From a virus, in the IMG/VR virus record IMGVR_UViG_3300042861_002114, positions 1 to 63,405 of that record: a stretch of 63,405 nt of DNA; one strand, given 5' to 3'. Shown here in pieces: positions 6,764 to 27,297 of the stretch. The stretch's first letter is position 1. Each line of letters begins with the position of its first letter. The notes beneath the pieces were generated by a model. That model had not been told where the DNA came from and ran no database searches. It saw only the letters and a list, made by a program, of their open reading frames with translations. The position numbers and the translations under genes are program-made.

Positions 6764-8311
6764 TCAGTTCCCTTGCCTAACTACAGAATAGATAAAATCA
6801 AACATCTCTGGATCGTTCTTAGCTAGGTAAATGGGGTTTCTGTGCATTAATTCTAATCCCATAGACAAAACCTCTGTACTTGTCGCATTACTCCCGTACA
6901 CTTTCCCCATGTAAGGATGTATCCATTTATCAACCTTAGTAACTTCGTAATCTTCGTAATTAAGTTGTGGATGTGCATCTTTTAATTTTACTATCTCCTC
7001 TCCGGCAGTTCTTCTATTATAAAAATTAAGCACCTCTTTGTGTATTAAAGGGGAACGATCCTCTATCCAATGCCCAGCTTCATGTATTAATGTTGCTTTC
7101 TCCGTGGTTCCCATGTCGATAGTCCCCGTTTGCCAGCAACAGCTTCTTTGTCCTTGTTTTATTTCACGAATAGACAATGTACTGGTTAACCCTGGAATTT
7201 CAATCATTCGAGAAAGTTCTTCTATCCCATCCTGATATTCTTTTTTTCTCTTTTTATCTAAAACTGTATTGTTAGTATTGATTTTTGTGGGATTATCCAC
7301 ATAGATTAATTTTCTGGCTTCTTGAAGAATTGCCTTAATTCTTTCGTTCGTCTTGGCTCCAGTGTAGTATTCAATGTTTTCATTTGTTAAAAATTGAGCT
7401 ATAACCTTTTTAGGTAAAAATCGGGGTACGGGAGGGGAATTGTTTAAGTCTTCCTGTAATTTTAATAACTGCGCTCTTTTCCCTTGTGCTTCGATCATCA
7501 ATGCGTCTCGTCTTCCCTTCCGTTGTTCCAATAAAATATCTAATTCTGCATCTTTAGCCTCTTTCTCCTTTCTTTCTTTCTCCCATTTCGCTCTAATCTG
7601 ATCTGCTTTTATTCTAAGCTGTTCTGATATTGTTCTGAACTTCTCATCTACCTCATTAGCTTTTTTGAGACGTTCTTGTTCCTCTAGCATTACCTGTTTT
7701 TGTTTCTCTAGCTGTTTTTGTTTCTCTAGCTCTTTTTGACGATCATTGTATGGTTTAAGTAGTCGAGAGACTTCTCGGACTTTTTCTACAAGAAGAGCCT
7801 CTTCTTCTCTTTGTGTACTTGGATTTATTTCTAATAATTTGTCTGTATAATATCTTCTTAACTTAAATAGCTTGTCAATCCGTTCTTCCGAAAAACTATC
7901 GTCAGCATTGGCTCTGCAACTTTTCTTGATATTGATACAAATACTTCCACAATTATAGGAAGTTGGCTTTACACACTGGGCTTTCTCCCTTTTCGCTCCC
8001 CCTGCATCAATTCGGTAAGAATAACCTGCTGAGAAGTCTTCCCAATTCTTTAAATCAACACCCCGACTATCAATTCTAGGGGTGAATGGCTTATAAGTAA
8101 CAGACCGCTTGTTAATCTCAAAGGAAAACACACGAGATCTGGTTAAGTCCTTAAACCGCCCTGTTATCTTTTCATTTTCCAGGGTTCCAGGATCGAAATC
8201 TAGCACAATGACCGGAGCATTATAGGCAAAAGGCATTGACAAGATTTGACCTATTGCCAATCTCATTTGAGCTTCGGAAGGTGCCATGTTAGTGGCAAAA
8301 GATTGAACCAT
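6764..8311 (-). CDS. Polymorphic virion effector with zinc metallopeptidase module
   Basis: A 515-residue member of the seven-protein effector family. Residues ~10-110 are the shared N-terminal domain (core MPFAYNAPVIVLDF), followed by the C-x7-C-x3-C-x6-C motif at C113, C121, C125 and C132. Residues ~170-285 form a charged coiled coil. The C-terminal module carries HEAGH (410-414), the zincin HExxH zinc/catalytic motif, with E480 in STEVLSMG as a plausible third zinc ligand. R-x-D-S/A sites lie at 79-82 and 100-103. Cleavage of a host protein is inferred; the substrate is unknown. It lies between head-connector and tail-chaperone genes in the late operon, so it should be made with virion parts. 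A broken sister copy lies at 8621-8770. Confidence 0.75.
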   Translation of the reverse strand: MVQSFATNMAPSEAQMRLAIGQILSMPFAYNAPVIVLDFDPGTLENEKITGRFKDLTRSRVFSFEINKRSVTYKPFTPRIDSRGVDLKNWEDFSAGYSYRIDAGGAKREKAQCVKPTSYNCGSICINIKKSCRANADDSFSEERIDKLFKLRRYYTDKLLEINPSTQREEEALLVEKVREVSRLLKPYNDRQKELEKQKQLEKQKQVMLEEQERLKKANEVDEKFRTISEQLRIKADQIRAKWEKERKEKEAKDAELDILLEQRKGRRDALMIEAQGKRAQLLKLQEDLNNSPPVPRFLPKKVIAQFLTNENIEYYTGAKTNERIKAILQEARKLIYVDNPTKINTNNTVLDKKRKKEYQDGIEELSRMIEIPGLTSTLSIREIKQGQRSCCWQTGTIDMGTTEKATLIHEAGHWIEDRSPLIHKEVLNFYNRRTAGEEIVKLKDAHPQLNYEDYEVTKVDKWIHPYMGKVYGSNATSTEVLSMGLELMHRNPIYLAKNDPEMFDFIYSVVRQGN

Positions 8312-8319
8312 GATTTTAC

Positions 8320-8619: not shown

Positions 8620-8620
8620 G

Positions 8621-8770: not shown

Positions 8771-8815
8771 ACTGGGGCCTCTTCATTTTAAGATTTCACC
8801 ACCGTTCTAATTGGT

Positions 8816-9007
8816 TTACTTTGTCTTGATTTTTCTTTGAGGTACTCCAGATGTTTTATCGTTAGACTTGCCTTCTGCGTTTAACTTGCTTTTCAATGTT
8901 TTGAGTTTGCGAGATGGGGCAGCAGATATCCCGTATTCAAGTTCAAGATTATCAATTTCATCCATATCTATTAGGATTTCATCGTCTGTTTGAGGCTTGT
9001 TATTCAT
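8816..9007 (-). CDS. Small acidic/basic protein of the effector region
   Basis: 63 residues with an acidic N-terminal half (DEILIDMDEIDNLE) and a lysine-rich C-terminus ending RKIKTK. No family recognised. Its first five residues (MNNKP) and 46 nt of upstream DNA are identical to those of the effector at 9051, so its start was copied from, or to, that gene. A relic of its C-terminus (RRKINTKK) is visible at 13704-13740, which suggests that it once travelled as a unit with the effectors. It may be a loading or chaperone-like partner, or a fragment. Confidence 0.45.
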   Translation of the reverse strand: MNNKPQTDDEILIDMDEIDNLELEYGISAAPSRKLKTLKSKLNAEGKSNDKTSGVPQRKIKTK

Positions 9008-9042: not shown

Positions 9043-9050
9043 ATTATATT

Positions 9051-10445
9051 TTATTCTAGTTTGGTTTTTTTCTCGTATTCCTTGACAAATGCCTTGGCTG
9101 ATTTTTCTGACAGATGAAAATATTCAAGTTCATATCCATATTTAGCACCTTTTTCAATTCGTTTTTTAAACCCAACTGACTCATAAAACGGCACAGCACT
9201 TTCTAATGACTCTAGTTTTATTTTCCCTTTAAATCCTCTTTTTACACTCTCTTGAATAGCATGATATATGATTTGTTTCCCCACTCCTTTTGTATTGGTT
9301 ATTATATTTGATGGATTAGTACCTAAAAATTCTATATACATAGATTCTTTAGATTTGTCATTTCCCGTAGTAAAGAAGCCTTGAGTTTTTCCAGATTCGT
9401 CCTTTAAAAAAAACGCATCTTGTAATCCTGCCTCGACTTCTGTTGCCCAAGCTAGACCCCCCGCCACAGCATTTGAGTCATCAACTAAATCTTTTTTTGC
9501 CTCCAGAACATCTCGCTCAATCACCTCATTGCCATACTTTATAAGTTTACCATACGGGGACTGCTTTAATGCTTCCCCCGTACTATCAACGTACTTACTG
9601 GATTTATTAATCCATTCTTTTGCCGTTTTCTTTATCTCTTTTACGGATGCAATGGAAGGCGTTAATTTACCAACTTTTCGCACTGGGGATTGCTGCTGTT
9701 TCTGTTTTTCTAGCTGTTTTTCTAGCTGTTTTTGTTTTTCTAGCTGTTTTTGTTTTTCTAGCTCTTTTTGTCTTTCTAGCTCTTTTTGTCTTTCTAGCTC
9801 CTTTTGTTTCTCTGGCTCTCTTTGTTTTTCTCTTACACCCCTGAGTGCAAGAGTAGTCACCTTATATTTTTTGAGAAGTTTAGCCTCCCTCTCCCTCTCT
9901 TTGTCAGGATTTAAACTATTTAATTGATCTAAATACAGTTTTTTTAACTTGAGTAACTTATCAATCCGTTCCTCCGAAAGTTCATCGTCAGCATTAGCAC
10001 TGCAATTTTTATTGATATTGATACAGATACTTCCACAATTATAGGATGTAGGCTTTACACACTGGGCTTTCTTCCTTTTTACTCCCCCTGTATCAAAACG
10101 ATAGGAATAACCTGCCGAGAAGTCTTCCCATGCCTCAACATTCAAACCCGTGCTGTCAATTCGTGCCACGAAGGGTCGAGCCACGAAGGGTCGAGCCACG
10201 AAGGGTTTATAAACAACCGACTTCCTGTTTATCTCAAAACTAAACACACGAGATCTAATGGCATCCTTAAACCGCCCTGTTATCTTATCGCCGTTACTAT
10301 CCCCTAAATCAAAATCAAGTACCACCACAGGCGAATTATAGGCAAATGGGAGCGATAACGTTTGAGCGATCGCGAGTTTCATTTGAGCCTCGGAAACCAT
10401 AGTATTTGGATTAATTTTCACTTCCATAGGAGGTTTGTTATTCAT
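9051..10445 (-). CDS. Polymorphic virion effector with GNAT acetyltransferase module
   Basis: 464 residues. The shared N-terminal domain (core LPFAYNSPVVVLDF) contains an in-frame triplication PFVAR at ~81-95. RIDS (95-98) and RFDT (116-119) are candidate processing sites, followed by the four-cysteine motif from C129. A linker of EKQKQL/ERQKEL hexapeptide repeats (~210-250) precedes a PVRKVGKLTPS joint and a C-terminal GNAT fold: NTKGVGKQIIYHA is the acetyl-CoA-binding motif A, and AVPFYESVGFKK is the terminal GNAT signature. It would transfer an acyl group to a host target after delivery; the target is unknown. The GNAT part is nearly identical to that of the next gene, showing recent module exchange. 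Confidence 0.75.
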   Translation of the reverse strand: MNNKPPMEVKINPNTMVSEAQMKLAIAQTLSLPFAYNSPVVVLDFDLGDSNGDKITGRFKDAIRSRVFSFEINRKSVVYKPFVARPFVARPFVARIDSTGLNVEAWEDFSAGYSYRFDTGGVKRKKAQCVKPTSYNCGSICININKNCSANADDELSEERIDKLLKLKKLYLDQLNSLNPDKEREREAKLLKKYKVTTLALRGVREKQREPEKQKELERQKELERQKELEKQKQLEKQKQLEKQLEKQKQQQSPVRKVGKLTPSIASVKEIKKTAKEWINKSSKYVDSTGEALKQSPYGKLIKYGNEVIERDVLEAKKDLVDDSNAVAGGLAWATEVEAGLQDAFFLKDESGKTQGFFTTGNDKSKESMYIEFLGTNPSNIITNTKGVGKQIIYHAIQESVKRGFKGKIKLESLESAVPFYESVGFKKRIEKGAKYGYELEYFHLSEKSAKAFVKEYEKKTKLE

Positions 10446-10480
10446 GTTCTTATCCTTAAATAGTGCCTATATTTTATCTT
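10435..10480. repeat. 46-bp direct repeat, copy 2
   Basis: Identical to 8997-9042. Here it also contains the stop codon of the effector at 10467, because the upstream gene runs into the shared leader. Confidence 0.9.
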
Positions 10481-12299
10481 GTTTTAGTTTTTTCTCGTAT
10501 TCCTTGACAAAGGCTTTAGCTGATTCTTCTGACAAATCGAAGTCCTCGGTGTATCCATCAACGCCTATTTTTGTTGTAAACCCAACTGACTCATAAAAAG
10601 GTTCTGCGGAGGATAACGCCTCTAGCTTTATTTTCCCTCTAAACCCTCGCTTCATACTCTCTTGAATAGCGTGGTATATGATTTGTTTCCCCACTCCTTT
10701 CGTATTAGTTATTATATTCGATGGATTAGTACCTAAAAATTCTATATACATAGATTCTTTAGATTTGTCATTTCCCGTAAGGAAAAAGCCTTGAGTTTTT
10801 CCAGATTCATCCTTCAAGAAAAACGTATCTTGTACTCCAGGCTCAGTTTCGCCAAGCTCAATTGATTCTGCTGTAACACCTAGCCCAAAAGTTACTGTCC
10901 TTGAGTCACCAACTAAACCTATTTTTTTCTCAAGAACCTTCCTTTCTATCTCTTGATTATTGCCATATTTTATGATTTCTCCAGGTGGAGACGCTTTTAA
11001 CACTTTCTTTGCAATAGTGAGGTACTTCTCTGATTTGTCAAGCCATTCTTCTGTCGTTTTTAGCATTTCCTCTATAGATGCAACAGAAGGAGTTAACTTA
11101 CCAACTTTTCGCACTGGAGGTTGTTGCTGTGCTTTAACTTCTTCCTGTTTAGCAGGTTTTTCTATTGGGGTGTCAACTTCCTCTACGTCTGCATAAATTA
11201 CACCGTCTTTTTCCGTGATACTCTTGACCTTGTGTCTGGCATCTTTTAGGACAACAACTTCATCTTGATTTGCGTAATAGGCTAAACTACGAACAGAAGC
11301 TCCGGTTTTATTCATACCTCTAATTACCACGGGTTGCGCCCCTTTCCCCCAAAACGAAGAAAAATCTTTGGCTATTTTTGGATCGGAACTCCAAGAGGAG
11401 TGGGCGGATTGATTGTCTAAAATACCGTCCTTGTCACCTTTCAACCACTCCAGTGCTTCTTCCCTGGAGGGCAAACTTATCCCTCTATGTATTTTTCCCT
11501 TGTATGGAGTTGAGCTTTTTACATAAGTGGCAACATCTTCTATTTGCTGATTAAATTTCCCTAACTTTTGCTCTCCTCTCATTTCGTCATTATCATTAGC
11601 CCATTCCGCAACGGAATCAACTATCCTTTGAGCCTCTTTCAAGGTTATTTGCTTTCCAGTCTTGGTTACTGCATCATAATATTCTTGTGCGTTTTTAGGT
11701 GCGCCATCGTGTGTTCCGTCACCAATTAAGCTAGTAGGTTGCTGTTTTTCAACTACGGGATTTGTTTTTTTGGGTTCTGGCTTTAATTCTGGAATTAAAA
11801 CAGGCGGTTTTTCCGCTTTGACTTTAGGAGTTGCTTCAACTGTTTTTGCATAATTTTTCCCGATTCCTTCTAAATTTTTAAGCCTATCTTTTATTGTGGG
11901 ATCATCAGTTTTAATCTTGCAGCTTTTCATGATGTTAATACAGGCTTTCCCACAGTTATAAGCTGTTGGCTTAACACACTGTGGCTTCTTATTACCTCCT
12001 ATCCCCGCATCTACCCGATAGGAGTAGCCACTAGAGAATTCCTCCCAGTCATCTACGCTATCCATCCGTCCTGGGGTGTAAGGTTTAAAAGTGACTGATT
12101 GCCCTTTGATATTAAATGAAAAAATACGGGGACGGGTTGCATCCTTGAATTTGCCTTCAAACTCCCCTTGATCATTTACCGAAAAATCCAATATCACCAC
12201 CGGAGCATTGTAGGCAAATGGTTGAGACAAAGTTTGGGCGATCGCCAACTTCATCTGTGGCTCGGTTGGCGTGGCATCTTTTCTAGTCGTTGAACTCAT
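10467..12299 (-). CDS. Polymorphic virion effector: ADP-ribosyltransferase plus GNAT
   Basis: 610 residues with two catalytic modules. The shared N-terminal domain (core PFAYNAPVVILDF) is followed by RMDS (78-81), RVDA (95-98) and cysteines C108, C116, C120, C127. Residues ~195-375 are an ADP-ribosyltransferase of the R-S-E class: R272 in HRGI, SSWSS at 301-305, and QDE at 345-347. Residues ~400-600 are a GNAT acetyltransferase (GVGKQIIYHA, EPFYESVGF) nearly identical to that of the 464-residue neighbour. In known virion ADP-ribosyltransferases such as T4 Alt the enzyme is injected to modify host transcription proteins; the same is inferred here. The stop at 10467 is followed closely by the next gene. 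Confidence 0.8.
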   Translation of the reverse strand: MSSTTRKDATPTEPQMKLAIAQTLSQPFAYNAPVVILDFSVNDQGEFEGKFKDATRPRIFSFNIKGQSVTFKPYTPGRMDSVDDWEEFSSGYSYRVDAGIGGNKKPQCVKPTAYNCGKACINIMKSCKIKTDDPTIKDRLKNLEGIGKNYAKTVEATPKVKAEKPPVLIPELKPEPKKTNPVVEKQQPTSLIGDGTHDGAPKNAQEYYDAVTKTGKQITLKEAQRIVDSVAEWANDNDEMRGEQKLGKFNQQIEDVATYVKSSTPYKGKIHRGISLPSREEALEWLKGDKDGILDNQSAHSSWSSDPKIAKDFSSFWGKGAQPVVIRGMNKTGASVRSLAYYANQDEVVVLKDARHKVKSITEKDGVIYADVEEVDTPIEKPAKQEEVKAQQQPPVRKVGKLTPSVASIEEMLKTTEEWLDKSEKYLTIAKKVLKASPPGEIIKYGNNQEIERKVLEKKIGLVGDSRTVTFGLGVTAESIELGETEPGVQDTFFLKDESGKTQGFFLTGNDKSKESMYIEFLGTNPSNIITNTKGVGKQIIYHAIQESMKRGFRGKIKLEALSSAEPFYESVGFTTKIGVDGYTEDFDLSEESAKAFVKEYEKKLKQDKI

Positions 12300-12310: not shown

Positions 12311-13585
12311 CTATACTTCCTCAGCTTCAACAATAATCCGTCCGTTTTCTTCTTTGACACTTTTAACTCGATGGCGAGTGTCTTTTAGCACCATAACTTC
12401 GTCTTCTTCTTTGATCCTGCTCAAATTCCTAATAGACACACCTGATTTATTAATGGTTTTAATGACGACGGGATACCTTTTTTCCTCAATAAAGAAATCG
12501 TCCGAAAAATTCTTTGCTGTTTTAAGGCTAGATGACCAAGAGGCGTGAGCACCTTGATTATCTAGCACCCCATCCTTGTCGCCTTTAGTCCAGTTTAAAG
12601 CCTCCTCTTTGGTTGCAAAATGAATCCCTCGGTAAACTTCGCCTTCGTATGGGGTTGAGTTTCTGACATAATTAGAGATCCGATTGGCATCTTCGTTTTC
12701 TTCCCCTGCTTTTTGATCGACTCGGATGTCAGTGGCATCCCTTGTCCATTTATAGATGGCTGTAGTGGTGGCTGCTGCCTCCTTCTTAGAAATATTTACC
12801 CCTGCTTTTTCCAGTGCTTCACGATATTCCTTGGGGGTTGAGGGCATGGATTCGTGGTCGCCCTTCCCTACTAAATTAAGGTTTTTAGGTTTTTCTTCGG
12901 GTTGTTTAAGGGTTTCTGTTTGATCTTCACTCTTTACAGCTATTTTAGCAGCTTTCTTCCCTTCTTCAAAGTCAGATTCTTTCTCTTTTTTGCTAGGGGG
13001 AATTTCCTTTATTGTTTCTGGGATTTTATCTATTTCTGGTGGTTTTTCTACCTCTTTCTTGGTTTTTGTAGTTGATTTAGGATTGGATTTCTTGGCTTCT
13101 TTAGCGTAATCAATACCAGCAGCTTTCAATTTCTCTAAACGATCCTTTGACTGATCGTCATCGGGGTTTGATTTACAATTATTATTAATATTTATACAGG
13201 CTTTCCCGCAATTATAAGCCGTTGGTTTAACGCATTGGGGTTTCTTTTTGTCTCCTGCCTTGCCTTTTGCCTTAACTCCTTTAGCTTTAGCATCAAAACG
13301 GAAGGAGTACCCTAAAGAAAACTCCTCCCATTGTTCTACTGCATCGCCCGAATCCATCCGTCCTGGGGTGTAAGGTTTGAAGTTAACGGTATTTCCATCT
13401 AACTCAAAATCAAACACCCTCGGACGGGCAGAATCCTTGAATCGCCCTGATATTTTACCCGTGTCATCTACCTTAAAGTCCAACACGTCCACTGGGGCGT
13501 TATAGGCAAAAGGAAGAGCAAGAGTCTGGGCGATCGCTGCTTGCATTTGTGCTTTTGTTGGGGCTGTTTTAGTCTCTATGCTCAT
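12311..13585 (-). CDS. Polymorphic virion effector with ADP-ribosyltransferase module
   Basis: 424 residues. Shared N-terminal domain, then RMDS (76-79), RFDA (96-99), the C-x7-C-x3-C-x6-C motif starting at C118, and a lysine/glutamate/proline-rich linker (~150-235). The C-terminal R-S-E ADP-ribosyltransferase shows R319 in YRGI, the S349-W350-S351 segment and EDE at 394-396, so the canonical ExE is intact. The start overlaps the stop of a 30-codon relic ORF by ATGA (13582-13585). The ART module is diverged from that of the 610-residue neighbour, unlike the near-identical GNAT modules, so it is older or under diversifying selection. Confidence 0.8.
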   Translation of the reverse strand: MSIETKTAPTKAQMQAAIAQTLALPFAYNAPVDVLDFKVDDTGKISGRFKDSARPRVFDFELDGNTVNFKPYTPGRMDSGDAVEQWEEFSLGYSFRFDAKAKGVKAKGKAGDKKKPQCVKPTAYNCGKACININNNCKSNPDDDQSKDRLEKLKAAGIDYAKEAKKSNPKSTTKTKKEVEKPPEIDKIPETIKEIPPSKKEKESDFEEGKKAAKIAVKSEDQTETLKQPEEKPKNLNLVGKGDHESMPSTPKEYREALEKAGVNISKKEAAATTTAIYKWTRDATDIRVDQKAGEENEDANRISNYVRNSTPYEGEVYRGIHFATKEEALNWTKGDKDGVLDNQGAHASWSSSLKTAKNFSDDFFIEEKRYPVVIKTINKSGVSIRNLSRIKEEDEVMVLKDTRHRVKSVKEENGRIIVEAEEV

Positions 13586-13789: not shown

Positions 13790-15274
13790 TTAAATTTCTT
13801 CTACTTCGACATATATTGTGCCATCTTTTTTTGTGACATTCTTAACCTTATGTTTTGCACTTTTTGGTACAACAACTTCGGACACCCACTCATAACCCTC
13901 TGGGGTAAGGTTTTGAATAGATGCACCCGTTTTATTTATTGCCTTAAGCACAACACGTTGTCCAGCATCACCGGCTCCTCTAAAACCAGCAAATTTTTCG
14001 GCAGTCTTGGGATCAGTAGTCCATGAAGCATGGGCACCTTGATTGTCTAATACCCCATCTTTGTCCCCTTTTAGCCAATTCATAGCTTCATCTTCTGAAT
14101 CAAAATTCATCCCCCTCTGTATCTCTCCCTTGTATGGGGTCGAATTTGCAAGATATTTAGAAATTAAATTTGCTCCTACGTTTGGTCTATTTTCTTTTTG
14201 TGATCTTCTAATTGCTTCGGAATTATAAACCCACGATCTGACATATTTAACAGTCGCCTTAGCCTCGCCTTCTGTTATTTCAATTCCTTTCTTCCTGGCC
14301 ATCTCATAGTATTCTTGCGGGTTTTTAGGTGTACTTTCATGAGTCCCATCACCAATCAAATTTGTTAGCTCAGGCTTCTTGGTCTCTGGTTCAGGTTTTT
14401 TAGTTTCTTCCTTTGGTTTAGATGCTTCTTTCTTTGGTTTAGATGCTTCTTTCTCTGGAGATTGAGTGGAACTTGGCGCTGTCGTTTTTTGGGATTTTAT
14501 GTAGTTAGCAACACCATCTTTTATTTTTGATAATTGAGTGCCACTAACCCCGGCTTTCGTTGCAGCTTCTTCTAGTCTAAGAACACTAACTCCTGCTTTC
14601 TTTGCCAAACCTTCTATCTGAGCAATGGAAAGAGTTTTTGCTTTTTCTTTCGTCTGTTTTTCTGCTGGTTTTTTCGTTTCAGCATTAGGATCTGTTTTAG
14701 CTGTTTTAGTTACTTCTGATGCCTTGGGTTTTTCTGTTACTTTGGTTGTTTTTGCATAATCCTTCCCTACTTCCTTTAATTTACTAAGCCTCTCCTGTGA
14801 ATTACTATCTTCTGTGCTGGATTTGCAGCTATTCTTAATATTGATACAGGCTTTCCCACAGTTATAGGCTGTCGGCTTAACGCATTGAGGCTTTTTTTTG
14901 CCACCTACTCCCGCATCAACACGGAAGCCATACCCTGCTGAAAATGCCTCCCATTCTTGGACATCTTCTTCTGATTCTAAGCTGTCCATTTTGCCAGGTT
15001 TATAAGGCTTATAGGCTACGGACTCCCCATCTAGGGTAAAGGAAAACACCCGTGGACGTGCCGCATCTTTAAATACTCCGGTAATATTGCCATTCTCGGC
15101 AACATCAAATTTAAGCACAACAACTGGGGCGTTATAAACAAAATCCATTGACAAGGTTTGGGCAATAAGTAACCTCATTTGAGCTTCGGTTGGTGCAGTA
15201 CCTCCGCCACCATCCCCAACTAATACTTCATCTTCGTCAACACGGAACAAAGAACTTGGTTTTGTTTTTAACAT
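13790..15274 (-). CDS. Polymorphic virion effector with ADP-ribosyltransferase-like module
   Basis: 494 residues. An extra N-terminal segment with a Gly-rich stretch precedes the shared domain (core MDFVYNAPVVVLKF); then KMDS (95-98), RVDA (118-121), the four-cysteine motif, and a long Lys/Pro/Thr-rich linker with SKPKEE repeats. The C-terminal ADP-ribosyltransferase-like module has R387 (QRGM), S417-W418 and E466, but the residue two before the catalytic glutamate is V464 rather than E or Q (VSE). Activity or acceptor choice may therefore differ from its sisters. It is the first effector after the connector genes, separated from them by a tandem repeat. Confidence 0.75.
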   Translation of the reverse strand: MLKTKPSSLFRVDEDEVLVGDGGGGTAPTEAQMRLLIAQTLSMDFVYNAPVVVLKFDVAENGNITGVFKDAARPRVFSFTLDGESVAYKPYKPGKMDSLESEEDVQEWEAFSAGYGFRVDAGVGGKKKPQCVKPTAYNCGKACINIKNSCKSSTEDSNSQERLSKLKEVGKDYAKTTKVTEKPKASEVTKTAKTDPNAETKKPAEKQTKEKAKTLSIAQIEGLAKKAGVSVLRLEEAATKAGVSGTQLSKIKDGVANYIKSQKTTAPSSTQSPEKEASKPKKEASKPKEETKKPEPETKKPELTNLIGDGTHESTPKNPQEYYEMARKKGIEITEGEAKATVKYVRSWVYNSEAIRRSQKENRPNVGANLISKYLANSTPYKGEIQRGMNFDSEDEAMNWLKGDKDGVLDNQGAHASWTTDPKTAEKFAGFRGAGDAGQRVVLKAINKTGASIQNLTPEGYEWVSEVVVPKSAKHKVKNVTKKDGTIYVEVEEI

Positions 15275-16756: not shown

Positions 16757-17710
16757 TTATTCGGGTAATACTACAATGTGCATGGAGAATGGGCGTTTGA
16801 GGTCAATTCCCCCAAACTTAAACTTGGCACCACGCCAGAAAGAATCAACACCAATGGGACGAGTATCAGTCCACTTTAATGGTTGATAAATCTTAGCAGA
16901 GACTTTTTTGGGATCTCGACGGAAAGCCTGAATAAAGCGGGTAGGAGCCAAACCAATCGACTCTAAATATTCGGGAGCCATCTCGGACACCACGCCGACT
17001 TCTTTGATGTTGGAGTTGACTTTTAAGAAGTGTTCTAACACTGTGCGATCTAAGGCAGATGTGCCAATTTGAATGATATCCGAGGAGAGGTGTTCGTAAG
17101 TTTCCGAATCCATCAGCAAAGTGTCAGGCTTCTCTCGATTATTGGTCAACCGAGTCGGAGCATTAACACAATCATTTAACACACTCAGCTTTTGCTGTGA
17201 TGTTGCAGACCCGTTTAAAGGGAAGGGAGCATAAGACCGCAGGGCTTGGGGGTGATTTAGAAACCCTGGCATCCCTGTTTCTAAATCACCGTTTGCCACC
17301 AACTGATTGATTTTTTGTTGTGCGGCTTCTTGAATTGTCCAGATTTTGTCCTCCTCAATGCTCTCGCCCATTCGACTGACAGCCGCGATATCATCCTCGG
17401 AAACGCTATAACCTTGTCCCCATTTATGGATCGGCATCTTCATCTCGCCATAGACCAGTTCCACTTCGGGAAGGTCTGTGGTGTAGTTTCGGATTAATTT
17501 GAACTGCCCGACGTGACGGAGCCACCGATATCCCCAGGTTTTTGCCCAGGGCTTGTTTTGGATGTTGAGAGGGCAAATGACTCCAGCAGCGAAAGGATAG
17601 TCCGCAAGATCGAACTCCTTATCTACTTGAGCTTCTAAGTCCATCAGGGTGCCAAAGAACGTCCCGATTTCATCAGCATCCAACCTTGTAGTCCCGGAAA
17701 AGTTCATCAT
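16757..17710 (-). CDS. Major capsid protein (DUF2184-like)
   Basis: 317 residues. Segments such as KTWGYRWLRH, GYSVSEDDIAAVSR, AAQQKINQLVANGD and GMPGFLNHP match the HK97-fold DUF2184 capsid family (E-loop and P-domain helices). It follows the cement-like and protease/scaffold genes in the standard order. Near the N-terminus TTRLDADE contains an R-x-D-A tetrapeptide (9-12), a candidate site for removal of a very short propeptide by the phage protease. The start has two adjacent ATGs (17708-17710 and next); the outer one is annotated. Confidence 0.85.
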   Translation of the reverse strand: MMNFSGTTRLDADEIGTFFGTLMDLEAQVDKEFDLADYPFAAGVICPLNIQNKPWAKTWGYRWLRHVGQFKLIRNYTTDLPEVELVYGEMKMPIHKWGQGYSVSEDDIAAVSRMGESIEEDKIWTIQEAAQQKINQLVANGDLETGMPGFLNHPQALRSYAPFPLNGSATSQQKLSVLNDCVNAPTRLTNNREKPDTLLMDSETYEHLSSDIIQIGTSALDRTVLEHFLKVNSNIKEVGVVSEMAPEYLESIGLAPTRFIQAFRRDPKKVSAKIYQPLKWTDTRPIGVDSFWRGAKFKFGGIDLKRPFSMHIVVLPE

Positions 17711-17729: not shown

Positions 17730-18560
17730 TTAAGGAACATTGAAGCCGATTAAAACGCACACCGCGCCAGTGCTAGTGACCACAGGGGAACATTTGAACT
17801 CAGCCTTCGCGGAGATATTAATTGTACCACTTGTCACTTTTGTTGCTTTCCCCTCGTGTCCCGCAGCAACAGAGACGTAGACGGCATCATTGATTGTGAT
17901 ATCCGTCTCAACACATTCAACCCAGATCCCTGACGATTCCCCTGTCCGGTCAACCACGTCCATCACATCCTGATAGGGGTAAGTTGTCCCACTATAGTTT
18001 GCACCTTGATAAATCAAAGGTTGCATTTCGATGTCTTTGACGATTCGAGTAATCCCTAGGATTACGTCACTGGTAGCAGTAGGAAGTCCTGCAACTTTGG
18101 GGTCGGTTTCGGTGTTTGCTCTGGCAACAAACCGACCGAATGGTACGGGGAGAGGAATAATCATCGCCGTGGTTACAGTTGCCGTTAAACTAGCACCAGT
18201 AACTACCAGGATGTTCTCGATACCATATTCCAGTGCCGTGAATAGCACGTTATTCCCACTAACACTTGCAATCCCCCGTCGCCCAAAAGCAGGGTTTACT
18301 CGGATTGCATTCAATAAACCAGCTTGCAGTTCCGCTTGAGTGGCACTAGCATCGGTTGTAAAACGTGCCGTGCCTAGTCCGTTGTTTAACCTGACGGTAT
18401 ATACAGTGCTAGAAGCAGGGGAGGCAGGAATCGCCAGAGTCCAGACCTCTTTAACAGCATTCTTTACAGAAACAAGGGCTTTGACTCTCGGAAAATTAAT
18501 AGATCCCTCGCCCATGCCAGGAGTCGCCCGATCAAATTGAAGATTGTAGTTGTACCGCAT
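17730..18560 (-). CDS. Capsid cement / decoration-like protein
   Basis: 276 residues, rich in beta-strand-forming and small residues, with a C-terminal part resembling DUF2190/structural-cement proteins (EMQPLIYQGANYSGTTYP, GIWVECVETDITINDAVYV, AKTEF-like hydrophobic repeats). It sits between the protease/scaffold and capsid genes, the usual place for a protein binding capsid threefold or centre positions. The start overlaps the protease stop by 1 nt (TAATG). An insert at ~50-140 looks like an added Ig-like or decoration domain. Confidence 0.65.
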   Translation of the reverse strand: MRYNYNLQFDRATPGMGEGSINFPRVKALVSVKNAVKEVWTLAIPASPASSTVYTVRLNNGLGTARFTTDASATQAELQAGLLNAIRVNPAFGRRGIASVSGNNVLFTALEYGIENILVVTGASLTATVTTAMIIPLPVPFGRFVARANTETDPKVAGLPTATSDVILGITRIVKDIEMQPLIYQGANYSGTTYPYQDVMDVVDRTGESSGIWVECVETDITINDAVYVSVAAGHEGKATKVTSGTINISAKAEFKCSPVVTSTGAVCVLIGFNVP

Positions 18561-20140
18561 TATCTAGTAACCCCCATGCGTGTTTTTCCTATCGTTAAAG
18601 GCTGCTTATAGGCGTGCACCCGTCGTCTTTCCCCTTCGGTGAGTTCATCTCCGTGGGTAGATTGAGCAGGTCTTTTGAGCATCGAATCAAGGCGATGGGA
18701 GAACTCCTCTGAGTCTCCATCGTCTCCATCGTCTCTATCTTCTTCCTCCTCGTCATCCCCTTCTTCTTTATCACCTGGATCGGTGGGGGAAGAATTACGA
18801 TTCTCCTGAACGTAGGCAAAAACCCCGTCTACATAAGAATCGGATCGGAACGTCAAGTCCATATTGGGTTCGATTTCAGCTAACAAAGTGCGTTTGATGT
18901 CGCTAGTAGAGAAGCTACTATCAAACCGAGCGTCAGAGAACCCTGGCAACAAACTGTCGGCTTCCTTCCATATCGCCAAAAGATCCCCGACCGAATCACC
19001 CCGACAAGCACTCTCATCTTCGTCGTTGCTATCAACACGAGGCTTGGACTTTTTTTTCTTTTTGGAAGTCGTAGTTTCTTCTTCCTCTGCAACATCCCAT
19101 TCTTCCATCATTTCTTCTTCTTCATTGTCCTCCTCTTCCATCATTTCTTCATCTTCGGGAACGGGAGGCATCATTTTCTTTTTGCCTCCATCAACGCGGA
19201 CGTACTGCCCCATGTCATTCCGGTAATAACCTAATTCACCAAGGACATTATCGGCATTGTCTACGATGATCTCTAGGTTATCTAACCGGAACTGGTAATT
19301 TTCCCGTGCGGCTTCTAGCTTCCGGTTCTCCCGACTCGTAGTATCAAACCGTGTAACAAGCGAATCGTGGCGTTCCTTTAATTCTTTCAATTCACGGAAT
19401 CGAGTACCGCTAATGGAAGCGAAAGATTCAGGGATTCCTGAATACTCAACTCCATCGCATCTAACTATTGCCATACGCTGTTCATTATCTCCATTATCAT
19501 TGGTTTTGTTAGGGTTGCTAGGGTTTTCGATGACTTGCCCTGCGACAGCTTGCCCTGCGACAGCTTGTCCTGCGACAGCTTGCCCTGCGACAGCTTGTCC
19601 AATCCCCGCAGCACTATCTAATCGGAGGCGAACATCTCCCCCTGCCCTTCCTCGGCTCGTCAAAGCCAAATGGTTGGCACGGACATTAATCTGTTCCCTG
19701 TCATAGTGTTGCCCATTCCACACCCCTTCCCCTTGCTTGATGTCGCAGGTATATCCAGCAGATAGTTGTTCCTTTTCCCTTGCATCAATTAGGGCGATCG
19801 CCTTAGCATCAAAAAACGACACCAAGCCTTTGATCACCCCTTCAGTCTTGTCATAATAAGCAGAAGAATCAGTCATCCCTACCGTGTAATCCTTGTAGCT
19901 TTCGCTATTAAGAAGTCCAACATAGGGATGTTCTATCACCAGGGGGAGGAGTTTGAAACTCTCTACTGTGGCCAGTTCTGCATTGGTTTCCGGTCTCCTG
20001 AGTTCGTGGACTATGGAGCCATCAGGCTGACGATACTCCAACACCCCGTCACAACAAAAAGACCCCTCACAATGGAGACGACCATCCTCAGTTCTTATTA
20101 CCCTAAATTTAGTTGGAGCATCGAGCCTGATTTCAACCAT
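18560..20140 (-). CDS. Prohead maturation protease fused to scaffold (DUF2213-like)
   Basis: 526 residues. Residues ~1-170 match DUF2213-type phage proteases: T-x-E-G-x-x-x-C-x-G start region, LPLVIEHPYV with the conserved HP, and SAGYTCDI. After this come four in-frame AVAGQ repeats (~182-202), a charged scaffold region with coiled coil and Glu/Lys-rich stretches, and a basic C-terminus. R-x-D-[S/A/T] occurs at 5, 173, 257, 264, 368, 405, 432 and 483, so the scaffold could be cut into pieces, the 173 site separating protease from scaffold. It is the first gene of the capsid operon, 75 nt downstream of the late promoter element. Confidence 0.8.
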   Translation of the reverse strand: MVEIRLDAPTKFRVIRTEDGRLHCEGSFCCDGVLEYRQPDGSIVHELRRPETNAELATVESFKLLPLVIEHPYVGLLNSESYKDYTVGMTDSSAYYDKTEGVIKGLVSFFDAKAIALIDAREKEQLSAGYTCDIKQGEGVWNGQHYDREQINVRANHLALTSRGRAGGDVRLRLDSAAGIGQAVAGQAVAGQAVAGQAVAGQVIENPSNPNKTNDNGDNEQRMAIVRCDGVEYSGIPESFASISGTRFRELKELKERHDSLVTRFDTTSRENRKLEAARENYQFRLDNLEIIVDNADNVLGELGYYRNDMGQYVRVDGGKKKMMPPVPEDEEMMEEEDNEEEEMMEEWDVAEEEETTTSKKKKKSKPRVDSNDEDESACRGDSVGDLLAIWKEADSLLPGFSDARFDSSFSTSDIKRTLLAEIEPNMDLTFRSDSYVDGVFAYVQENRNSSPTDPGDKEEGDDEEEEDRDDGDDGDSEEFSHRLDSMLKRPAQSTHGDELTEGERRRVHAYKQPLTIGKTRMGVTR

Positions 20141-21236: not shown

Positions 21237-21604
21237 TCATGGGTTGGGGGGGTTTGCTTTTGCCTCTTTATGTTTATCAATTATGGCTTTAAAAGATTGC
21301 TTTAGATCGTTTTCATTCATCCCTACACCATTCAAAGTAAATGTAGTGGGAATTAAAAATTCAGGGAGATCGGAACCGTCGCCTTTTTAACCTGTTGCTT
21401 TGTTTTCGGATCGTTAATGTGTCTCCGAAAAACAGAGTTATGAGCTTCGTTGATGCTTTTCAAGATTTCATTACCCACTACATTTATCCGTTTAGCCATA
21501 TCCTTTGTTTCTTGACTAAATTGATCTTCACTAAATTGATCTTTTGGCTTTTTTGTGTTTGTCAATTTGCTCCTGTAAAATCTCCCTGGTTTTTTCAACC
21601 CCAA
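21237..21604 (-). pseudogene. Frame-disrupted 3' extension of the 510-residue effector
   Basis: Beyond the stop of the effector at 21531, protein-like sequence continues in other frames. After an A6 run at the effector end, the +1 frame reads DQFSEDQFSQETKDMAKRIN... to 21353; a further shift reads SDLPEFLIPTTFTLNGVGMN...IIDKHKEAKANPPNP to the stop at 21237. A 15-bp tandem duplication (DQFSE/DQFSQ) lies at the first break. The ancestral effector was probably ~95 residues longer. Programmed frameshifting at the A run is possible but less likely, given two separate breaks. Confidence 0.55.
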
Positions 21605-23063
21605 CAGTATTAGCCATTCCCTTTACTTTGGACTCTAAAAAAGCAGGGTAAGTTTCAACTTTATCTTGAGATAAAAAGGTCTTAACCTCCTTTAATTTTA
21701 TGTTTGCATTATTCAGTTGTCGATTTAACTCCTTTTTGTCTTTTGGGGATAATTCTGTTTTTAACTTTGACTCTAACGCACTAACACTGGACTCTAAAGA
21801 GTTAATATCAAAAGACGCTTTTAAACCTTCAATTAGCTGATTTGTTCTATTAATCTCATAATTTTGATAGACTTTTGCTTGCTCCTCATTCGTCTTTCTC
21901 ATCATCTCCATCTGTTTATTACGTTCTTCTTTATTCTTTTCCTCCTGGGCTTTTCTATCTATGTCGGCTTGCTGTTTTTTCTTAGCTTCTTCCTCTCTGA
22001 ACCTTTGCATACCAGCCTCAATTTCAGCGTTGGCTTTAGCTCGTTTTTCCTCTGTGATTTTGTTTTTTGCATCCCGTTTAGCCCTCAAATCAGATGATCT
22101 GGCATCATCCATTAAGCTCTTAGCTTTTACGATTTTCTTCTCTATTCCCGAAACTTTTGTTAAATCTTTTTCGTTCCAATTAATACCGGATCGATTCAAT
22201 TCAACCAATGCTTTTTGAGCCTGAGTTTCGCTATCAAAATCACCCAACGATATGCCACTATTAACATGAGTAATGCTATAGGTATTGAACAAAGATCCTT
22301 TATTTGAATTAATCCCCAATCCGTTGCCATAAACAGTCCCTTTGACCGTCTCATCCCCTGATCGGGTTTTAATTAGATATTCCCCATCTTCACCCTTGAG
22401 TTTTTGGGATTCGGTTTCTAGCCATTCGTCATACTGTTTTGTCCCAGTTCTGGGCTTGGGTGGTTTCGGTGTCAGCTTGTTATTCTCCTGTCTCTTAGCC
22501 GAATCATCTTGAGCCTCCTTAAACCCTGCTGGTTTTGGGGTTAGTTTATTGTTTTTTTGTTTCTTGGTCGGATCATCCTGAGCCTCCTTAAACCCTCCCG
22601 CCATAGCTTTAACTTTGTCCAGCTTTTCCTGGGAAGGTTTATCAGGGGGGTCTGACTTGCAGTTCTTATTTAAGCTAATACAAGCCTTCCCGCAGTTATA
22701 GGAGGTATTGCCACACTTAGGTTTTTCCTTCCTCTTGGTTTTAACTGCGTCATACCGATAGGTGTACCCTTTAGAAAATTCTTCCCACACCACTGGATCG
22801 ATATCCGCGCTGTCTATTCTTTTCCAGGTAAATGGCTTAAAATTTATGGAGTCATCAATCTCAAATTCAAATATACGGAGTCGGGAAGCATCCTTAAATC
22901 TACCCTTGATCACATTCCCGTTACCTACCTCAAAATCTAGGACAATTACGGGGGAGTTGTAGGCAAATGGAAGTGATAGGACTTGCGCGATCGCTAACTT
23001 CATCTGAACTTCGGTGGGAGCCATGTTAGATTGGTTTGCTTTGATGACGGGAGTTGTAATCAT
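21531..23063 (-). CDS. Polymorphic virion effector, C-terminus unclassified and probably truncated
   Basis: 510 residues. Shared N-terminal domain (core LPFAYNSPVIVLDF), RIDS (82-85), RYDA (103-106) and the shorter cysteine motif C-x6-C-x3-C-x6-C (KCGNTSYNCGKACI...C), which it shares only with the 1148-residue member. Then follow duplicated KPAGFKEAQDD segments, a ~60-residue domain (GEDGEYLIKTRSGDETVKGT...) and a long charged coiled coil. No catalytic motif recognised. The reading frame seems broken near the 3' end (see 21237-21604), so the present protein may lack its toxic tip. Flanked by 49-bp direct repeats. Confidence 0.7.
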   Translation of the reverse strand: MITTPVIKANQSNMAPTEVQMKLAIAQVLSLPFAYNSPVIVLDFEVGNGNVIKGRFKDASRLRIFEFEIDDSINFKPFTWKRIDSADIDPVVWEEFSKGYTYRYDAVKTKRKEKPKCGNTSYNCGKACISLNKNCKSDPPDKPSQEKLDKVKAMAGGFKEAQDDPTKKQKNNKLTPKPAGFKEAQDDSAKRQENNKLTPKPPKPRTGTKQYDEWLETESQKLKGEDGEYLIKTRSGDETVKGTVYGNGLGINSNKGSLFNTYSITHVNSGISLGDFDSETQAQKALVELNRSGINWNEKDLTKVSGIEKKIVKAKSLMDDARSSDLRAKRDAKNKITEEKRAKANAEIEAGMQRFREEEAKKKQQADIDRKAQEEKNKEERNKQMEMMRKTNEEQAKVYQNYEINRTNQLIEGLKASFDINSLESSVSALESKLKTELSPKDKKELNRQLNNANIKLKEVKTFLSQDKVETYPAFLESKVKGMANTVGVEKTREILQEQIDKHKKAKRSI

Positions 23064-23789: not shown

Positions 23790-23850
23790 AATTATTATTA
23801 AATTATATCATTTTTACTTTGGACAAAACACAGGATAAATTTGTCCTTGA

Positions 23851-26800
23851 TTAAATTTCTTCGGTTTCTACATATAATATGCCATCTTTCTCGGTAACAC
23901 TCTTGACTTTATGTCTGGCATCTTTTGCGACAAGTATCTCGGCTTCGCTCTCTTTGTAATGACTTAGTTTTTCAATGGACGCACCCGTTTTATTGACCGA
24001 ACTAACAATAACGCCCGCCAATTTTTTATTAGCTTTACGCATCATGGGGTTTGTATATACCCAGGCAACGGTTTCTTTGGAAGTCCATGAAGCATGAGCA
24101 TTTTGATTATCTAATACCCTATTTTCGTCCCCTTTAATCCATTCCATTGCCTCCTCTCTGCTATCAAAAACTATCCCCCTGTGAATATCGCCCTTATAAG
24201 GTGTTGAGTTCCTTACATAATCAGAAATAAGCTCTGCTTTCTTGTTGGACTTCCCTTTTTTTTGATCATTCCGAATATCACTGGAGTTACGAGACCAGCC
24301 AGAAACAGCAGCAACGGTATCCTCAGCCTCTTTCATGGTCATTGCTTTCCCAGTTTTTACCGCCGCATCATAGTATTCCTGAGCATTTTTAGGGGTTCCT
24401 TCGTGGGTTCCATCTCCTATTAATTTAGGAGCATCTTTGACGATTTCTTCTTTCGGAACCAGAGGCGATTCTTGCTCTTGCGATCGCACCTCTTGAACTT
24501 TTATTGTTTTCTGTTTTACTGCCTTTTGTTTTACTGACTTTTGTTTTACTGCTTTCTGGGATTGGGGGGCATCAGGCTTTAAGTCGTTGGGGGAACTATC
24601 GGAATCATCTACTTTGTAACGTTTACCATCTCGGATGACGTGGGTAACTGTATCAAGGGCAAGGGATGGCTCATTTTTATAAGGTTTCCCCATATACTCG
24701 CCCTGGACTCTTGTTTTAACATTCTTGACATTAACTTTTAGAACTTCGCCACCGTCAACAATTCGATAACCCGCAGGGGAACTTCCTCCCATCATAGAAT
24801 AAGTGCTTTCTTTAACTAGCAATTTATCCCCCTGAGTTAGTGTCTGTTTTAATTCCTTACTAGGAATATTACCAGACAGAGGGGGAGGTAATTCCATAGA
24901 CTTCATTACGGTTTTTAATTTGTCATAATCCATTTTATAGTCTGGACTATCATAATATTCATGCTCTTTGTAGCCTTTTTGTTTTAGTTTATCAAGAATA
25001 TAAACCCCTGCTTCTGATTCTGTTTCATAATCACCTGCTTTTGCCTTTTGCCGTCTCTCGTTTATGAAGTTTTCGGCATCAATAACGGGCTTATATTTAT
25101 CAATTTGCTTTTGATAATAGTCTCCCATTCCTTTTGGGACTGTCTCAGAAGCTATCGCAGTTAAATACTCGTTATAATTCTTTCTCTCGAAGTCACCTAT
25201 ACCGCCTCTGAGTGCCGATGACAAAGCCTCCTCTGTTCCTTTTGGATCTTTAGAACTGGCAATAATATCCTTGTATTGTTGATCAACCGATTTAACAGGG
25301 GGTTTGTCAGTCTTGGTTTTAGCGATCGCTCTTTGTGCTACAGCAGGAATAGAGGCTGGCTTGGGTTCTGATAAAACAGATTCCGTTCCTCTCGATTCTC
25401 TTAACGCCTTAATTTCACCATCCAAGGAAGTTGCCCGACTTTCAGCATCTTTAATTTTGGTCTGTAATTTAGCTATTTCGCCCTTAGCGCGATATGAAGA
25501 CTCCACAGCCTTTTTATCGTCTGCCAAATCTCTAATATCTTTGTTGATCTCATTAATCCTTGTCGGGATGGATACTGTCCTTTCTGGGAGATTAGATACT
25601 GGATTTCTGACTTCTATCATGTCATTCGGGTTTCGCATCGTAAGGAGCCTAAGCTCATTATAATTATTGTCAATCGCCGTTTCACGAAATTGTTTTGAAT
25701 TATTTAATATCACAGCCTCGTTATAAGATTTTTCTTGTTTTAGGCTATTTAACTCTTTTTGTACCCGTTGTTTTTTATCAAATAATTCATAGTCCTTAGC
25801 AACGGTTTTGTTAATTCGTTGCATGATTGGTCTAAAGTTGGGGTGAGCTTTTTCTAAGTTTTCTTGTGTTAACGGGTTGAGACTATCTGCTTTATTAAGA
25901 ATCCTAGAAATAGATCCCGTAATCTTTTTGAATTCAACATTGCCACCACTACCTAATCTATCTAAATTATCCGTCATTTCCTCCCATTCATTTAAGTTGA
26001 TATCTTTAGGAATCCCTTCCCCTGATTCTAATTTACTTACAACTTGCTTCCACTGCTCAAGATTTTTTGAGACGGCTTCTTTATCTTTTGATGCAATATT
26101 TGCCCGTGATTCTCTTGCTAAACCAACAATATCAAGTGTCTTGTTAGATTCTGATTTAGCGATCGCACCCTTAACCCCTGTTGAATTTGGGGATGGTTTG
26201 GGGTCTTCAGGTAGTGATAGACCTTTCCTTCTGCTTGACTCCTGAGCCCTTTCTTCAATCCGAGTATTTTCAAATTCTTCTGTAATTTTCTTTCTAGTCT
26301 CAGGGTCTAGTTTTCTAAGTCCTTTCTCTGTAACATTTTTAGATTCTAAAAAGTCAGACCATTTTTTGTCAGCATTAATTGTTGTTTGACTTGGTTCTTT
26401 TTTCTGATCTTTTAGTTGACCGCCTGACGAATTAATTTTAATTTGTTTCCCATTATTTAAAAGGTCGTTAATTCTTCCCCCTAATTCTTTGTCAACAGAT
26501 ACAGCATTAGACCCTCCTAGTCCAACAGCTTCTCTAAGTCCGTTAATTCTAGCTACAGCAGTGGCGTGGGGGATTTGATATAAATTAGCGATAGACCGAG
26601 ATGATAAACCTTCTGCTTCATTTTTTAGTCCGTTTTGATACTGGTGGTATTTTTGATAAGCTGTTTCTGCTAAACTTTTATTCAACTCATTTTCCGCGAT
26701 AGCTTTCTTTAGTGTATCGCGCATTTTATCTTCGTTCGCTAGTGTCGGTTTTGTTTCCGGTGGTTTTGGCGTTAATTTATTATCTTCTTGCTTCTTGATT

Positions 26801-27297
26801 GGATCATCCTGAACGGCTTTAAATTTCCCTGCTGCGGCTCTGAGTTTATCGACTTTTTCTTGGGAGGGTTTATCCGGTATATCTGATTTGCAGTTTTTAT
26901 TCAACCCAATACAGGCTTTGCCACAATTGTAGGAGGTATTGCCACACTTAGGTTTTTCCTTCCTAACGGTCTTAGCTACATCGAATCGGTAGCAATACCC
27001 CTTTGAGTAGTCCTCCCACGCCACGGGGTCAACGTCGAGGCTGTCCGTTCGTTTCCAGGTAAACGGTTTGAAGGTAATGGAATCCCCGATTTCAAACTCA
27101 AAAACACGGGATCTAATGGCGTCCTTAAACCGTCCTTTAATGATGTTTTTGTTGCCTACTTCAAAATCCAGAACGATAACCGGAGAGTTGTAGGCAAATG
27201 GCATCGACAAGACTTGAGAAATACCAAGTTTCATCTGCACTTCTGTTGGGGCAGCATCAAAGCTAGGGGGATTTTGACGGTTTAAGGTAGTGACCAT
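23851..27297 (-). CDS. Giant polymorphic virion effector with C-terminal ADP-ribosyltransferase
   Basis: 1148 residues, the longest family member. Shared N-terminal domain (core MPFAYNSPVIVLDF), RTDS (83-86), RFDV (104-107) and the C-x6-C-x3-C-x6-C motif. A helical region ~180-280 is followed by ~500 residues of charged coiled coil and a ~80-residue beta-rich domain (~860-940, MMGGSSPAGYRIVDGGEVLKV). The C-terminal ~200 residues are an R-S-E ADP-ribosyltransferase: R1040 (HRGI), S1070 (ASWTS), and the intact ExE at 1118-1120 (EAE). VKQKA/VKQKS repeats (~965-985) form the linker. Size suggests that it must unfold to leave the head. It lies first in the effector series after the late promoter at 28269. 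Confidence 0.8.
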   Translation of the reverse strand: MVTTLNRQNPPSFDAAPTEVQMKLGISQVLSMPFAYNSPVIVLDFEVGNKNIIKGRFKDAIRSRVFEFEIGDSITFKPFTWKRTDSLDVDPVAWEDYSKGYCYRFDVAKTVRKEKPKCGNTSYNCGKACIGLNKNCKSDIPDKPSQEKVDKLRAAAGKFKAVQDDPIKKQEDNKLTPKPPETKPTLANEDKMRDTLKKAIAENELNKSLAETAYQKYHQYQNGLKNEAEGLSSRSIANLYQIPHATAVARINGLREAVGLGGSNAVSVDKELGGRINDLLNNGKQIKINSSGGQLKDQKKEPSQTTINADKKWSDFLESKNVTEKGLRKLDPETRKKITEEFENTRIEERAQESSRRKGLSLPEDPKPSPNSTGVKGAIAKSESNKTLDIVGLARESRANIASKDKEAVSKNLEQWKQVVSKLESGEGIPKDINLNEWEEMTDNLDRLGSGGNVEFKKITGSISRILNKADSLNPLTQENLEKAHPNFRPIMQRINKTVAKDYELFDKKQRVQKELNSLKQEKSYNEAVILNNSKQFRETAIDNNYNELRLLTMRNPNDMIEVRNPVSNLPERTVSIPTRINEINKDIRDLADDKKAVESSYRAKGEIAKLQTKIKDAESRATSLDGEIKALRESRGTESVLSEPKPASIPAVAQRAIAKTKTDKPPVKSVDQQYKDIIASSKDPKGTEEALSSALRGGIGDFERKNYNEYLTAIASETVPKGMGDYYQKQIDKYKPVIDAENFINERRQKAKAGDYETESEAGVYILDKLKQKGYKEHEYYDSPDYKMDYDKLKTVMKSMELPPPLSGNIPSKELKQTLTQGDKLLVKESTYSMMGGSSPAGYRIVDGGEVLKVNVKNVKTRVQGEYMGKPYKNEPSLALDTVTHVIRDGKRYKVDDSDSSPNDLKPDAPQSQKAVKQKSVKQKAVKQKTIKVQEVRSQEQESPLVPKEEIVKDAPKLIGDGTHEGTPKNAQEYYDAAVKTGKAMTMKEAEDTVAAVSGWSRNSSDIRNDQKKGKSNKKAELISDYVRNSTPYKGDIHRGIVFDSREEAMEWIKGDENRVLDNQNAHASWTSKETVAWVYTNPMMRKANKKLAGVIVSSVNKTGASIEKLSHYKESEAEILVAKDARHKVKSVTEKDGILYVETEEI

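What the first reader, a model, noticed from the sequence alone, without database searches (positions are those of the whole stretch)
6764..27297. Seven-member polymorphic effector family inside the virion operons
Seven proteins share one N-terminal domain (core FAYNxPVxVLxF, then WEEFSxGYxYR) and a C-x6/7-C-x3-C-x6-C motif, but end in different enzymes: HExxH peptidase (6764), GNAT (9051), ART+GNAT (10467), ART (12311, 13790, 23851) and an unclassified coiled coil (21531). Modules are shuffled: the GNAT parts of 9051 and 10467 are almost identical while upstream parts differ. The genes sit among capsid, connector and tail genes, so the products are probably loaded in the head and delivered with DNA, like T4 Alt, but as an exchangeable set on a common loading domain. 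Sequence shows the paralogy and catalytic motifs; injection is inference.
Basis: partly seen in the sequence, partly recalled or inferred. Interest (0 to 1): 0.92.

Follow-up and report, generated by a model that had tools for sequence, protein, structure and literature searches.

The report
Cleavable-tag effector set in cyanophage virions
A Planktothrix phage carries seven related proteins, each a shared front end joined to a different enzyme-like part, and the front end bears what look like cutting sites for the phage's own capsid protease, which suggests a swappable set of enzymes packed into the virus particle and sent into the host.

Summary
Seven same-strand proteins share a ~110-residue domain plus a four-cysteine (Cys4) motif (44-78% pairwise identity), then diverge: ADP-ribosyltransferase (ART), GNAT, HExxH zincin, or unassigned. 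Fold comparison supports ART and GNAT well, the zincin weakly. One claim was overstated: the two GNATs are 71% identical.

The window is a relative of Planktothrix phage PaV-LD. In five related contigs the slot of gene 10467 keeps 89-99% of its N-domain but ends in ART+GNAT, three ARTs, one ART or nothing.

New here: R-x-D-[S/A] is enriched only in virion-block proteins (24 seen, 3.6 expected; elsewhere 2 against 2.9). It occurs eight times in the protease/scaffold, at the capsid protein's N-terminus, and at least once in each shared domain. I infer that it is the prohead-protease cut site. In Aphanizomenon phage CL131 and relatives, the unit site-Cys4-cargo repeats 2-5 times inside large proteins, with alpha/beta-hydrolase cargo.

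Best reading: head-loaded, protease-trimmed, exchangeable effectors. Packaging, cleavage and injection are inferred; no proteomics table could be read. It works like T4-type internal proteins, MuF toxins and polyvalent proteins, but fails defining features of the last two. New variant of a known kind.

The parts
6764..8311 (-). family protein 1: N-domain + Cys4 (about 7841-8311), coiled region, HExxH zincin (about 6767-7399)
9051..10445 (-). family protein 2: N-domain + Cys4 (about 9936-10445), charged repeat linker, GNAT (about 9054-9683)
10467..12299 (-). family protein 3: N-domain + Cys4 (about 11853-12299), ART (about 11175-11735), GNAT (about 10470-11114)
12311..13585 (-). family protein 4: N-domain + Cys4 (about 13106-13585), ART (about 12314-12880)
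13790..15274 (-). family protein 5: N-domain + Cys4 (about 14753-15274), ART (about 13793-14365)
21531..23063 (-). family protein 6: N-domain + Cys4 (about 22587-23063), unassigned C-part with a coiled region
23851..27297 (-). family protein 7: N-domain + Cys4 (about 26818-27297), long unassigned middle, ART (about 23854-24429)
18560..20140 (-). DUF2213 head maturation protease with acidic scaffold-like tail; eight R-x-D-[S/A] copies
16757..17710 (-). major capsid protein with R-L-D-A at residues 9-12 (about 17675-17686)
29759..31753 (-). portal protein with C-terminal InPase domain; R-E-D-S at residue 22

Best explanation
The seven proteins are effectors that the phage packs into its head and delivers to the host with its DNA. 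Each is made as a precursor: a shared N-domain, predicted prohead-protease sites of the form R-x-D-[S/A], a Cys4 knuckle, and one or more enzyme modules. The N-domain would bring the precursor into the prohead; the DUF2213 protease that trims scaffold and capsid protein would cut at the shared sites and leave Cys4-tagged enzymes in the head. The enzymes (ART, GNAT, zincin) would then modify host proteins early in infection, and modules are swapped between phages under host pressure. Shown: paralogy, module swapping, conserved catalytic residues, motif enrichment. Inferred: that the motif is the cut site, packaging, injection, host targets.
For: Shared domain in seven genes. PHROG 'minor head protein' for 7 of 7. 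R-x-D-[S/A]: window virion block 24 in 19 proteins against 3.57 expected, reached in 0 of 500 shuffles; other 39 ORFs 2 against 2.9; 8 of 8 control motifs not enriched. PaV-LD: 23 in 20 block proteins against 3.7 (maximum of 300 shuffles 11), 0 in 59 others against 4.6 (79 of 142 CDS tested). Eight copies in the protease/scaffold, capsid protein position 9 here (RLDA), in PaV-LD and in CL131 (RMDA). Family: 154 sites in 14,558 residues of shared part, 8 in 40,979 residues of C-terminal parts. Same-slot module change. ART R, S, S/T and E in 34 of 34 distinct domains. CL131 group: site within 30 residues upstream of Cys4 in 13 of 17 contexts, background 7.1%. A C-terminal module found in this slot elsewhere (L041) matches the end of portal proteins (phrog_21, E 3.3e-57).
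Against: No virion proteomics was readable. 20 of 103 family ORFs carry Cys4 and an enzyme without the N-domain. Only 4 of the seven have the exact motif on both sides of WEEFSxGY; the others have one exact copy and a near variant. The family sites are paralogous, so they are not independent counts. In two of three other DUF2213 phages looked at, the capsid protein N-terminus lacks the motif. Two ORFs outside the block have it. The N-domain fold stayed unpredicted.
Confidence: 0.62

Rival explanations
1. R-x-D-[S/A] is a docking motif for the scaffold or capsid, not a cut site. The proteins are still head-loaded, but as full-length proteins.
For: The same motif enrichment fits. P1 Hdf is a head protein that is not cut (passage).
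Against: Eight copies are spread through the protease/scaffold tail, including the border of the protease domain at residue 173, which is what a scaffold chopped by its protease would show; the motif is nearly absent from the enzyme parts (8 in 40,979 residues).
Confidence: 0.15
2. The proteins are MuF-like polymorphic toxins that act in competition between lysogens and their neighbours, with immunity proteins, rather than helpers of infection.
For: Conserved front end, variable enzymatic C-termini including ART and metallopeptidase, as described for MuF toxins (passages of PMC5576092). PaV-LD carries an integrase gene.
Against: No MuF domain in any of the seven. No room for an immunity gene directly after 10467 (21 nt) or 12311 (11 nt). 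Up to seven per genome.
Confidence: 0.1
3. The enzymes are late-expressed and act inside the producing cell or on assembly; they are not delivered.
For: They sit in the late block; Cys4-zincin members without the N-domain exist.
Against: The shared motif with scaffold and capsid protein and the label minor head protein point to the particle.
Confidence: 0.1

Closest known systems
T4 internal head proteins and Alt
   Same: ARTs of R-S-E type carried in the head and injected; T4 propeptides target proteins to the prohead core (passages)
   Different: here a ~110-residue shared domain plus Cys4 instead of a short targeting sequence (recalled to be about 10 residues), and up to seven proteins with exchangeable enzymes
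SPN3US/phiKZ ejection proteins (paralogue family A, gp53/gp54)
   Same: paralogous head proteins with long N-terminal propeptides (125 and 137 residues) cut at more than one site by the prohead protease, with serine favoured after the cut (passages of PMC10052503)
   Different: no sequence relation was tested; here a different protease family (DUF2213) and predicted enzymatic, swapped C-termini
MuF polymorphic toxins (PMC5576092)
   Same: phage head-associated front end with variable toxin-like C-termini
   Different: no MuF domain; several genes per genome; immunity genes not evident
Polyvalent proteins (PMC5512222)
   Same: virion-associated effectors with several unlike domains; portal fused to InPase also occurs there
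   Different: their ARTs are of H-Y-D type while these are R-S-E; one enzyme set per gene on a repeated tag; processing assigned there to MPTases, here inferred for the prohead protease
P1 DarA/Hdf/DdrB system
   Same: internal proteins co-injected with DNA; DarA loses about 9 kDa to the prohead protease (passages of PMC12810830)
   Different: P1 proteins are not a set built on one shared tag as far as the passages say

Membership tests
MuF polymorphic toxins | Phage_Mu_F domain (PF04233) | tested here: not met
   no such hit at E <= 0.1 in any of the seven; it is present in the CL131 portal fusion
MuF polymorphic toxins | small ORF (immunity gene) directly downstream | tested here: inconclusive
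   no room after 10467 and 12311; a 63-aa ORF at 8816-9007 follows 9051; a 204-nt gap follows 13790; no immunity function tested
MuF polymorphic toxins | conserved N-part with variable C-terminal enzyme | tested here: met
Polyvalent proteins | two or more unlike effector domains in one polypeptide | tested here: inconclusive
   met by 10467 (ART+GNAT) and by the CL131-group large proteins in part; not seen in the other six window proteins
Polyvalent proteins | ART of the H-Y-D clade | tested here: not met
   R-S-[S/T]-E in 34 of 34 distinct ART domains; definition from section 9 of PMC5512222
Polyvalent proteins | packaged and injected | not testable with these tools
   no proteomics readable
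ADP-ribosyltransferases, R-S-E type | ART fold with R, S-x-[S/T] and E residues | tested here: met
   fold Z 15.4 for 10467; residues 34 of 34; the residue two before E is E in 20 of 34
GNAT acetyltransferases | GNAT fold | tested here: met
   Z 12.6, rmsd 3.0, 165 aligned; Pfam hits just under cut-off
Zincin metallopeptidases | HExxH with zincin fold | tested here: inconclusive
   H, E, H invariant in 14 of 14 aligned rows; fold Z 9.0 but no Foldseek hit at E <= 0.001
Prohead-protease-trimmed internal head proteins | cut by the prohead protease at its consensus site | not testable with these tools
   a shared candidate site was found; cutting not shown

The most novel reading that the evidence does not exclude
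A general cargo system of cyanophages: a cleavable tag (prohead-protease site plus Cys4 knuckle) that can be put before any effector, used either as one gene per effector (PaV-LD group) or as a polyprotein with several site-Cys4-effector units (CL131 group) that the prohead protease cuts into separate head-loaded effectors.
Probability: 0.35. Interest if true: 0.85.

Novelty: new variant of a known kind. Interest (0 to 1): 0.72.

Why it matters
If true, it gives a readable code for phage head cargo: proteins with the site and the Cys4 motif could be listed as delivered effectors from sequence alone. It would link scaffold proteolysis with effector release, explain how one phage can carry many exchangeable host-modifying enzymes, and offer a candidate cut site for DUF2213 proteases, whose relatives occur in 1010 of the 50,697 phage records searched. 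It also offers a candidate tag for loading chosen proteins into phage heads.

Tried and rejected
Rejected: MuF membership (no PF04233); chance origin; 'almost identical' GNATs (71%). A cellular or prophage source: two scans of genome contigs with short patterns matched 55 and 81 stretches, none confirmed; this shows only that no close relative was reached. Solved structures by sequence: nothing convincing for the shared domain or the L041 module. NCBIfam: 0 hits for 8 of 8 proteins. A distant Cys4 match in Synechococcus phage S-CBWM1 has E 3 and was not followed beyond its gene table. The PaV-LD proteomics paper (Gao 2012) is not held; I recall that it reports thirteen structural proteins by mass spectrometry but not which ORFs. 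CL131 has 23 proteins found by LC-MS/MS, 13 with PaV-LD homologues (section 10 of PMC6293099); the table naming them could not be opened.

Results against my reading: the two N-domain-like groups of CL131 relatives do not match each other (probability 0.2%), and the gp045 group matches the window domain weakly without Cys4 (29.7%; 40 column shuffles reached at most 4.4%). Et88 and Meifeng capsid proteins lack an N-terminal site. K-x-D-[S/A] is not enriched in the window block (5 seen, 6.9 expected), yet (part) and 92 counted K as well as R. The architecture label is clustered on the N-domain tree (16 changes; shuffled mean 39.0), so swapping is repeated but not free.

Papers: no paper describing this family appeared in the listings; most of those papers were seen as listings only. 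Passages only: PMC5576092, PMC9503650, PMC10052503, PMC12810830, PMC10343443, PMC9958718, PMC9096620, PMC9229316. PMC5512222: abstract, outline, passages, sections 9 and 32. PMC6293099: section 10 and passages.

Full report
What is there. The window is a 63,405-base virus record related to Planktothrix phage PaV-LD (87% identity over 53% of the first 25 kb). Seven minus-strand genes share an N-terminal domain and a Cys4 motif; identity over the shared part is 44-78% for the 21 pairs. Their C-terminal parts differ: zincin (6764), GNAT (9051), ART+GNAT (10467), ART (12311, 13790, 23851), unassigned (21531). The ART and GNAT folds are supported for 10467; the zincin fold is weaker. In the ARTs R, S, S/T and E are kept in 34 of 34 distinct domains taken from the window and relatives, so they look catalytically intact.

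Relatives. Two scans of viral contigs gave 10 and 40 loci. A profile of the domain, whose 12 rows include the seven and five PaV-LD sequences, found 185 ORFs, 110 distinct; after dropping loci that are copies of the window or of PaV-LD, 103 remained. Their architectures: N-domain with no recognised enzyme 32, N+ART 16, N+two ARTs 11, N+three ARTs 2, N+zincin 7, N+GNAT 5, N+ART+GNAT 3, Cys4+zincin 16, Cys4+ART 4, and 7 short or partial ones. All 8 records searched whole hold members, 2 to 10 matches each, fragments included.

Swapping. In the slot of 10467, N-domains of five other contigs are 154/156, 148/156, 152/156, 139/156 and 147/151 identical to the window's, yet the enzymes are three ARTs, ART+GNAT, ART+GNAT, one ART and none; their ARTs are only about 50-58% identical to the window's. 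At 12311 one contig has a 167/168 N-domain and two ARTs instead of one. At 21531 an N-domain of 158/159 identity leads to a C-part without a match beyond the first ~30 residues; that other module matches the C-terminal end of portal proteins (phrog_21, E 3.3e-57). A block of the 23851 C-part is 60% identical over 279 residues to a block of PaV-LD ORF065, which belongs to a different slot. On a tree of 73 N-domains (65 different; rows open at the 3' end or lacking much of the domain were dropped) the seven architecture labels need at least 16 changes, against a minimum of 6 and 39 for shuffled labels.

The motif. R-x-D-[S/A] stood out when the seven were read beside the protease. Each of the seven has at least one exact copy in the shared part; 4 of 7 have it on both sides of WEEFSxGY, the others a near variant on one side. 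The DUF2213 protease has eight (0.5 expected), one near its N-terminus, one at the end of the protease domain, six in the acidic tail; the capsid protein has RLDA at residue 9. In the window, 19 virion-block proteins hold 24 copies against 3.57 expected (0 of 500 shuffles) and 39 other ORFs hold 2 against 2.90; I chose these 58 of the 132 listed ORFs by hand. Eight control motifs showed no enrichment. In PaV-LD 20 block proteins hold 23 against 3.7 and 59 others hold 0 against 4.6; 79 of 142 CDS were tested. Of the 24 in the window 13 are in the family, which is paralogous, and 11 are not. The motif was found first in this window and then tested, so PaV-LD (a close relative) and CL131 (a distant one) are the fairer tests: CL131 has RMDA at capsid residue 9 and six [RK]-x-D-[S/A] in its protease. 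Among other DUF2213 phages, Rtp has RYDS at protease residue 5 and KFDA at capsid residue 4; Et88 and Meifeng have RSDS or RSDA at residue 19 of a small protein next to the capsid gene but nothing at the capsid N-terminus.

The CL131 group. Searches with CL131 gp044 and gp045 gave further contigs. In these and CL131, proteins of about 800 to 2,223 residues carry 2-5 Cys4 motifs each; in CL131 gp048 lies next to the tape-measure gene. Of 17 distinct Cys4 contexts with 40 residues upstream, 13 have [RK]-x-D-[S/A] within 30 residues before the first cysteine, against 7.1% of random windows of the same proteins; in the PaV-LD group 14 of 19 against 10.4%. One internal segment is homologous to the window's N-domain without the cysteines (profile probability 93%, E 2.9e-7; 40 column shuffles at most 3.9%; 97% with the cysteines). 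Pfam finds alpha/beta hydrolases above cut-off in 3 of 4 of these large proteins scanned, and a sub-threshold HipA-like kinase in one.

Mechanism. The simplest account is a precursor whose shared domain enters the prohead and whose sites are cut by the same protease that removes scaffold and capsid propeptides, leaving Cys4-tagged enzymes in the head. Precedents are passages on SPN3US gp53/gp54 and P1 DarA. Cutting, packaging, injection and targets are not shown. Twenty family ORFs have Cys4 and an enzyme but no N-domain, so either Cys4 is enough or those proteins act otherwise; GenBank calls one of them (ORF081R) a virion structural protein, on a basis I could not see.

Comparison. It is like MuF toxins and polyvalent proteins in strategy, but the seven lack MuF and the ARTs are R-S-E instead of H-Y-D. 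I rate it a new variant of a known kind, with the polyprotein/cleavable-tag reading as the bold case.

Noticed in passing
window 29759-31753 (-): The portal protein ends in an InPase domain (PF18823, E 3.2e-26); the CL131 portal has InPase and MuF.
   Followed up: partly
L012 4798-5274: In one contig the slot of 10467 holds a 159-residue ORF that is N-domain and Cys4 with almost nothing after it, like an empty cassette.
   Followed up: no
L001 (PaV-LD), around record positions 53649-53738 and 55536-55628: Fragments of the N-domain in another frame lie just before ORF079 and ORF080, so some copies look degraded.
   Followed up: no
window 29100-29510 (+): A 136-residue ORF with cysteine pairs ends in FRVDSMLRR, similar to HRLDSMLKR near the end of the protease protein.
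   Followed up: no
window 51273-52253, 54359-55405, 59240-60286: PAPS reductase-like, DNA methyltransferase and ribonucleotide reductase small subunit genes.
   Followed up: no
L021 39276-39956 (CL131 gp044): Cys4 followed by a part containing HNHP, with distant matches in gut phages (E 3e-16 at best) and no Pfam hit within E 0.05.
   Followed up: partly
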